Assembly: GCA_021737185.1 (NCBI GenBank)
Contig: JAIPEL010000009.1
Span: 1 to 64,000, forward strand
Source: Desulfobacterales bacterium
GTDB lineage: Bacteria; Desulfobacterota; Desulfobacteria; Desulfobacterales; CAFBRK01
Direction of reading: 5' to 3'
Length of the DNA: 64,000 bases
Both the position numbers and the translations under genes were made by a program. Position 1 is the stretch's first letter; each line of letters begins with the position of its first letter. The notes below the pieces were generated by a model. The model saw only the letters and a program-made list of their open reading frames with translations, was not told the origin of the DNA and did not search any database. Shown in pieces: positions 9,826 to 10,176 of this stretch.

Positions 9826-10176
9826 ATGGCGAATTTTCTGTTCGTGGTGAGCCAGGACGACAACGAAAAGATGACGCGGTGCTATCAGTTCGCCAAGATC
9901 GCCCACGAAAAGGGGCACACCGTGAACGTCTTTTTGATCGACGGGGGGGTAATGTGGGCCGACACGGGCCGGGACCACGACATCAGAACGCCCACCGGGG
10001 ACTGCCCCAACGACTACCTGCCCTACCTGGTCGAGCACGAAGTGCCCATCGGCGTCTGAATCCCGTGTGCGAAGGCTCGTCAGGTTGACGAGTCCAAGTT
10101 CTTTTCCAACATGGTCCTCGACGGCGGCCCCCACCTGATCGACATGGCTGCCGACGCCAAGGTCTTCAACTTTTGA
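9826..10176 (+). CDS. DsrE-family protein, probable selenoprotein (Sec at the in-frame TGA 10057-10059), 116 aa
   Basis: The ORF stops at TGA 10059 in the track, but the same frame continues IPCAKARQVDESKFFSNMVLDGGPHLIDMAADAKVFNF* to TGA 10174-10176; UxxC motif (U-I-P-C); SECIS-like hairpin 10074-10094; RBS aaggagg upstream. Confidence 0.82.
10074..10094 (+). promoter_or_regulatory. Candidate bacterial SECIS element
   Basis: ggctcgtca-ggt-tgacgagtc: perfect 7-bp stem ctcgtca/tgacgag plus G-T and G-C extension; GGT loop 23 nt after the TGA. Confidence 0.75.

What the first reader, a model, noticed from the sequence alone, without database searches (positions are those of the whole stretch)
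9826..10176. Unannotated selenoprotein: DsrE-family protein with UxxC motif and adjacent SECIS-like hairpin
Sequence: the track ends this ORF at TGA 10057-10059. The same frame continues for 38 codons (IPCAKARQVDESKFFSNMVLDGGPHLIDMAADAKVFNF) to a second stop at 10174-10176, giving ...HEVPIGV-U-IPCAKAR.... The TGA falls where a redox Cys is expected in this family, creating U-x-x-C. Right after it, ctcgtca-ggt-tgacgag is a perfect 7-bp stem (extended by G-T and G-C pairs) whose GGT apical loop starts 23 nt after the TGA. Established: bacterial SECIS hairpins lie just 3' of the UGA with a G-rich small apical loop, and DsrE-like selenoproteins have been reported in prokaryotic selenoproteome surveys. 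Inference: this is a genuine Sec-encoding gene that standard callers would truncate.
Basis: partly seen in the sequence, partly recalled or inferred. Interest (0 to 1): 0.92.

Follow-up and report, generated by a model that had tools for sequence, protein, structure and literature searches.

The report
DsrE-family selenoprotein gene in sulfate reducer
A small sulfur-handling protein whose gene looks cut short by a stop codon is almost certainly made full length, because that codon inserts selenocysteine at the active site; this type of bacterial selenoprotein is already catalogued, so the gene is a solid new member rather than a new kind.

Summary
The frame 9826-10176 reads through TGA 10057-10059 into a 116-aa protein that fills the whole Pfam DsrE domain. 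Its genome has tRNA-Sec, selA, selB and two selD genes that themselves carry in-frame TGA. Of 96 distinct orthologues, 37 have TGA and 59 have Cys at codon 78; none has anything else there and none ends there. The part after the TGA is under the same purifying selection in both groups. The SECIS hairpin (10074-10094) meets every published bacterial SECIS rule. It is the most synonymously frozen stretch in the TGA genes but not in the Cys genes. One stem pair switches between U-A, C-G and U-G without ever breaking across two DsrE subfamilies, even though this replaces an otherwise constant Asp by Gly. Two Cys orthologues nest inside the Sec groups; one keeps an intact fossil SECIS. Sec78 aligns with Cys78 of A. 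vinosum DsrE, the persulfide-carrying residue, so I infer a stand-alone sulfur-carrier or redox protein with Cys81 as partner. That function is untested. DsrE-like UxxC selenoproteins have been catalogued since 2005, so this is a new member of a known kind. Expression is not shown.

The parts
9826..10176 (+). Full-length CDS, 116 aa with Sec78 (DsrE/DsrF-like family, PF02635), stop codon included
   Evidence: Read-through translation; PF02635 over residues 4-116, E = 3.9e-18; orthologues colinear to the same stop
10057..10059 (+). In-frame TGA read as selenocysteine (Sec78 of U-I-P-C)
   Evidence: TGA in 37 and Cys in 59 of 96 distinct orthologues at this codon
10074..10094 (+). Bacterial SECIS hairpin, GGU apical loop at 10083-10085; pair 10080-10088 covaries
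   Evidence: Fold; codons 85-89 are the most constrained window in TGA genes only; pair column 24-32 is U-A 21, C-G 12, U-G 1, never broken
10066..10068 (+). Cys81, presumed resolving cysteine of the UxxC motif
   Evidence: Invariant in A1 and in all 96 orthologues
10174..10176 (+). True stop codon (TGA)
   Evidence: Codon 117 is TAA 42, TGA 29, TAG 24 and GAC 1 in 96 orthologues
9815..9821 (+). Shine-Dalgarno-like AAGGAGG, 4 nt before ATG
   Evidence: Read from the sequence
9519..9797 (+). Upstream Smr-domain gene, 28 nt away; possibly same transcript (context only, linkage not conserved)
   Evidence: PF01713 E = 4.7e-25; not found beside orthologues

Best explanation
The gene encodes a 116-residue DsrE-family selenoprotein of a sulfate-reducer-type (Desulfobacterota) bacterium. 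SelB carrying Sec-tRNA-Sec recognises the GGU-loop hairpin just 3' of UGA 10057 and decodes it as Sec78. That Sec insertion happens is strongly supported by comparison but not shown by experiment. The product folds like DsrE, TusD and YchN (predicted). Sec78 takes the place of the persulfide-carrying Cys78 of DsrE and TusD, and Cys81 is the likely resolving thiol. The protein most likely works on its own as a sulfur (persulfide or selenosulfide) carrier or thiol redox partner in cytoplasmic sulfur traffic. This last step is inferred. The confidence given is for the Sec-encoding gene; for sulfur carriage as against redox catalysis it is about 0.5.
For: Domain runs through the TGA. tRNA-Sec with TCA anticodon, selA, selB and two TGA-bearing selD genes are in the same genome. 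Orthologues split 37 TGA to 59 Cys with nothing else at that codon. dN/dS after the TGA is 0.057 in both TGA and Cys groups. SECIS: codons 85-89 are the lowest-diversity window in TGA genes (0.10 against a mean of 0.51) and unremarkable in Cys genes. The core stem is in the minimum-energy fold of 48/52 Sec sequences against 2/74 Cys sequences. There is a compensatory pair U-A/C-G/U-G. All four published bSECIS constraints are met. Two Cys reversions nest in Sec clades, one with an intact SECIS. Function: residue 78 aligns to DsrE Cys78 in 2hy5_A. Best fold matches are DsrEFH 2hy5_A, YchN 1jx7 and TusD 2d1p_A. DsrE-Cys78 carries the persulfide in A. vinosum (PMC3397948).
Against: No expression or mass-spectrometry data. 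The hairpin alone is no stabler than shuffles. Only one stem pair covaries, the outer pairs are not kept in all orthologues, and A2 holds 34 of the 52 distinct Sec sequences. No conserved gene neighbourhood supports the proposed sulfur-relay role: window neighbours are absent beside orthologues apart from four loci with a CoA-disulfide-reductase/rhodanese relative, and recurrent neighbours occur in at most nine loci. The score is far below the TusD equivalog cut-off.
Confidence: 0.95

Rival explanations
1. Real gene of 77 aa ending at the TGA; the downstream similarity is a remnant (pseudogene or assembly error).
For: Standard gene calling ends the ORF there.
Against: No orthologue ends there. 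The 3' part is under strong purifying selection in TGA genes, dN/dS 0.057. 37 distinct TGA sequences exist, many at distant branches of the tree.
Confidence: 0.01
2. Dual product: under selenium shortage UGA acts as a stop and the 77-aa piece has a role of its own, so the codon is a selenium-dependent switch.
For: UGA has both meanings in any Sec-decoding cell (established). Some genomes hold a Sec copy and a Cys copy (L046 and L095 in one MAG; G079), as expected if Cys forms back up the Sec forms.
Against: The truncated form lacks Cys81 and the C-terminal third of the domain. Nothing in the sequence protects or marks the truncated product.
Confidence: 0.05
3. Sec insertion is real, but the protein is a thiol/selenol redox enzyme (UxxC oxidoreductase) rather than a sulfur carrier.
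For: UxxC/CxxC pair invariant. The selenoproteome literature classes DsrE-like UxxC proteins as thiol-redox proteins (PMC1088965).
Against: Residue 78 coincides with the persulfide-carrying Cys78 of DsrE, and the fold is that of sulfur-transfer proteins.
Confidence: 0.4

Closest known systems
DsrE-like selenoprotein family (Pfam PF02635, UxxC) of Zhang and Gladyshev: Sargasso Sea 2005 (PMC1088965), Desulfovibrio vulgaris 2006 (PMC1794560), GOS 'DsrE 1/DsrE 2' 2008 (PMC2398784), WP_014524487.1 in the 2026 inventory (PMC13188914)
   Same: PF02635 domain, UxxC motif, bacterial SECIS just 3' of the UGA, Cys homologues at the same column, Deltaproteobacterial hosts.
   Different: I could not fetch the published sequences, so whether this exact subfamily (U-I-P-C-A-x-x-R-Q-V-D-E) was among them was not tested. 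Its compensatory SECIS change with Asp88-to-Gly and its fossil-SECIS Cys reversion are not described in the passages I read.
DsrE of DsrEFH (Allochromatium vinosum, 2hy5) and TusD of TusBCD (E. coli, 2d1p)
   Same: Fold; Sec78 aligns with the active Cys78.
   Different: Only 21-24% identity. UxxC instead of a lone active Cys. No F/H or B/C partner genes next door. Scores 21 bits against a TusD cut-off of 89.25. DsrEFH is reported absent from sulfate reducers (PMC3397948).
YchN (E. coli, 1jx7)
   Same: Same length (117 aa) and TM-score 0.81 by both lengths.
   Different: 18% identity; Cys rather than Sec.

Membership tests
Bacterial selenoprotein gene | In-frame UGA inside a conserved coding region, aligned with Cys in homologues | tested here: met
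   37 TGA to 59 Cys in 96 orthologues
Bacterial selenoprotein gene | tRNA-Sec, SelA, SelB and SelD in the genome | tested here: met
   RF01852 73.8 bits with TCA anticodon; selB 367 bits; selA 608 bits; two selD above 360 bits
Bacterial selenoprotein gene | bSECIS rules: 3-9 nt apical loop, 4-16 bp stem, G in the first two loop positions, 16-37 nt from UGA, MFE at most -7.5 kcal/mol (PMC13188914) | tested here: met
   3-nt GGU loop, 9-bp stem, 23 nt, -13.8 kcal/mol
Bacterial selenoprotein gene | Selenium in the protein (75Se label or mass spectrometry) | not testable with these tools
DsrE/DsrF-like family PF02635 | Score over the gathering cut-off along the whole domain | tested here: met
   66.1 bits against 22.7, profile 3-116 of 116
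DsrE-like UxxC selenoprotein family (literature) | PF02635 with UxxC and SECIS | tested here: met
TusD/DsrE sulfurtransferase equivalog (TIGR03012) | Score over the curated cut-off of 89.25 bits | tested here: not met
   21 bits; not filed as TusD
TusD/DsrE sulfurtransferase equivalog (TIGR03012) | Partner subunits (DsrF/H or TusC/B) beside it | tested here: not met
   Pfam scan of the flanking genes shows Smr, a CoA-disulfide-reductase/rhodanese protein, PlsY and a nitrate-reductase-type operon

The most novel reading that the evidence does not exclude
Sulfate reducers, which are reported to lack DsrEFH, use this stand-alone DsrE selenoprotein as a selenol-based persulfide (-Se-S-) carrier. 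Its SECIS has been important enough to dictate protein sequence: where the stem uses C-G instead of U-A, the otherwise constant Asp88 has become Gly.
Probability: 0.3. Interest if true: 0.55.

Novelty: new member of a known kind. Interest (0 to 1): 0.33.

Why it matters
Standard annotation truncates this gene and drops its catalytic residue, so the true proteins of these organisms are missing or wrong in databases. The family is a good test case for SECIS evolution. It shows a compensatory stem change that costs an amino-acid replacement, two Sec-to-Cys reversions (one with the hairpin still intact), and genomes holding both forms. If Sec78 carries sulfane sulfur, it would be a selenium-based sulfur carrier in sulfate reducers.

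Tried and rejected
Rfam scan of 9700-10300: no match. Single-sequence folding energy as evidence: not significant. Co-occurrence of Sec machinery with the TGA form: uninformative, since selA passes the cut-off in 52 of 53 TGA- and Cys-bearing genomes, and both reversion genomes still have selB. Gene neighbourhood: not conserved. Sequence search of the PDB with the single protein: no hit; the profile and the fold search were needed. The Olavius Delta 1 selenoproteome paper is not held. My first pair table was off by one column; the pair counts used are those.

Full report
Observation. The sequence is as described. ATG 9826, TGA 10057-10059, then 38 further codons to TGA 10174-10176 give a 116-residue protein with U-I-P-C at 78-81. 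A Shine-Dalgarno-like AAGGAGG precedes the start. The hairpin GGCTCGTCA-GGT-TGACGAGTC occupies 10074-10094, with its loop 23 nt after the UGA.

The protein. Read through, it matches Pfam PF02635 (DsrE) over residues 4-116 with E = 3.9e-18. It is not a TusD equivalog: 21 bits against a cut-off of 89.25. The AlphaFold2 model (mean pLDDT 91) is closest to DsrE of DsrEFH (2hy5_A), YchN (1jx7), a Sulfolobus DsrE/F-like protein and TusD. In the profile alignment to 2hy5_A, residue 78 falls on DsrE Cys78, the residue shown to carry sulfur and to be essential in A. vinosum (PMC3397948). The model was built with Cys in place of Sec.

The genome. The window's own genome carries tRNA-Sec with a TCA anticodon, selB, selA and two selD genes each with one in-frame TGA. 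The latter have Sec-like read-through and downstream hairpins. The cell can therefore decode UGA as Sec.

Orthologues. I collected 96 distinct orthologous genes from related genomes and from GTDB representatives. At codon 78, 37 have TGA and 59 have TGC or TGT; nothing else occurs. The stop is at codon 117 in 95 of 96. Codons 79-116 outside the hairpin core have a median dN/dS of 0.057 in TGA genes and 0.057 in Cys genes. Translation past the TGA is thus selected as strongly as in genes with an ordinary Cys codon.

SECIS. Three independent lines support the hairpin as a functional RNA element. First, codons 85-89 (Arg-Gln-Val-Asp-Glu) are the most synonymously constrained five-codon window in TGA genes (0.10 against a mean of 0.51). 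Arg is CGT, Gln is CAG and Asp is GAC in all 37. The same window is unremarkable in Cys genes, where Arg uses at least five codons. Second, the core stem is part of the minimum-energy fold in 48 of 52 distinct TGA sequences but in 2 of 74 Cys sequences. Third, a second DsrE subfamily (39-46% identical, found) also has TGA in this column in 13 of 16 close members. There the stem reads CGCC-AGGTY-GGCG instead of CGTC-AGGTT-GACG. On a 34-sequence alignment that samples both subfamilies, the pair that corresponds to 10080-10088 is U-A in 21, C-G in 12, U-G in 1 and never broken; the number of double changes and the covariation score exceed all 500 shuffles. The change at 10088 replaces Asp88 by Gly. 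Asp88 is otherwise constant in all 59 Cys orthologues, and the Cys members of the second subfamily keep Asp. One member of the first subfamily, L168, shows the C-G/Gly form too, so the switch happened more than once or was regained. RNA pairing thus appears to override a conserved protein residue. The element meets all four published bSECIS constraints (PMC13188914).

Evolution. On a DNA tree the Sec/Cys label needs 3 changes, or 6 if the Sec codon and hairpin columns are left out. Two Cys rows sit inside Sec groups. L060 (Syntrophobacteraceae bog_1154) has Cys with the hairpin CGTCAGGTTGACGAG still intact. L085 (Desulforhopalus vacuolatus) has a decayed version. Both genomes still have selA and selB, so reversion did not follow loss of the machinery. 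At least two genomes hold a Sec and a Cys copy (L046 with L095; G079), although these are metagenome bins and binning errors are possible.

Function. Shown: family, fold (predicted), and coincidence of Sec78 with the persulfide-bearing position. Inferred: sulfur carriage or thiol redox with Cys81. The gene neighbourhood does not help. Window neighbours (Smr, CoA-disulfide-reductase/rhodanese, PlsY, nitrate-reductase-type operon) are not beside the orthologues, apart from CoA-disulfide-reductase relatives at four loci, and recurrent neighbours reach at most nine loci.

Comparison with the known. DsrE-like UxxC selenoproteins with bacterial SECIS were described in 2005 (PMC1088965), in Desulfovibrio vulgaris in 2006 (PMC1794560), as DsrE 1 and DsrE 2 in 2008 (PMC2398784), and are in the 2026 inventory as predicted with high confidence and functionally uncharacterised. 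The finding is therefore a new member of a known kind. The compensatory SECIS change with its protein cost and the fossil-SECIS reversion are additions I did not find in the passages read.

Limits. No experimental evidence of Sec incorporation in this organism or its relatives was available. The function is a model. I could not compare with the published DsrE-like selenoprotein sequences themselves.

Noticed in passing
L179:1501-1809 (G000:C143:15245-15553), same genome, outside the window: A second DsrE-family selenoprotein candidate, 103 aa, motif U-G-V-C, with its own hairpin ATCCCAC-GGTCTG-GTGGGAT 21 nt after the TGA. Close homologues in 12 or more related genomes nearly all have TGA there and I saw none with Cys, so this subfamily may be Sec-only.
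   Followed up: partly
L191 (G140:C110:11987-12295): A member of that second subfamily has TGG (Trp) at the Sec position and an in-frame TAG where relatives have Lys39: a decaying copy or sequence error, or (unlikely) a recoded TAG.
   Followed up: partly
L193, L194, L195 (G063, G080, G024): A further DsrE-like subfamily with in-frame TGA in a U-G-K-L motif with no second Cys (UxxL instead of UxxC) and a GG-loop hairpin after it.
   Followed up: no
L060:636-980: Cys orthologue nested among Sec orthologues that still carries the complete SECIS sequence: a recent Sec-to-Cys reversion with a fossil SECIS.
   Followed up: yes
L128, L138, L140, L142-L150 and L168: Second DsrE subfamily (and one member of the first) with SECIS stem CGCC/GGCG and Gly at the position of Asp88.
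   Followed up: yes
L046 and L095; G079:C691 and G079:C116: Genomes with both a Sec and a Cys copy of this protein; both are metagenome bins.
   Followed up: no
window 10414-16120: NarGHJ-type molybdopterin oxidoreductase operon directly downstream; linkage to the DsrE gene is not conserved.
   Followed up: partly
window 5013-6740: Single ORF joining a LytB (IspH) domain and a UbiA prenyltransferase domain.
   Followed up: no
window 6835-8508: CoA-disulfide-reductase-like flavoprotein with a C-terminal rhodanese domain near the DsrE gene; a relative lies beside the Cys reversion in L060.
   Followed up: no
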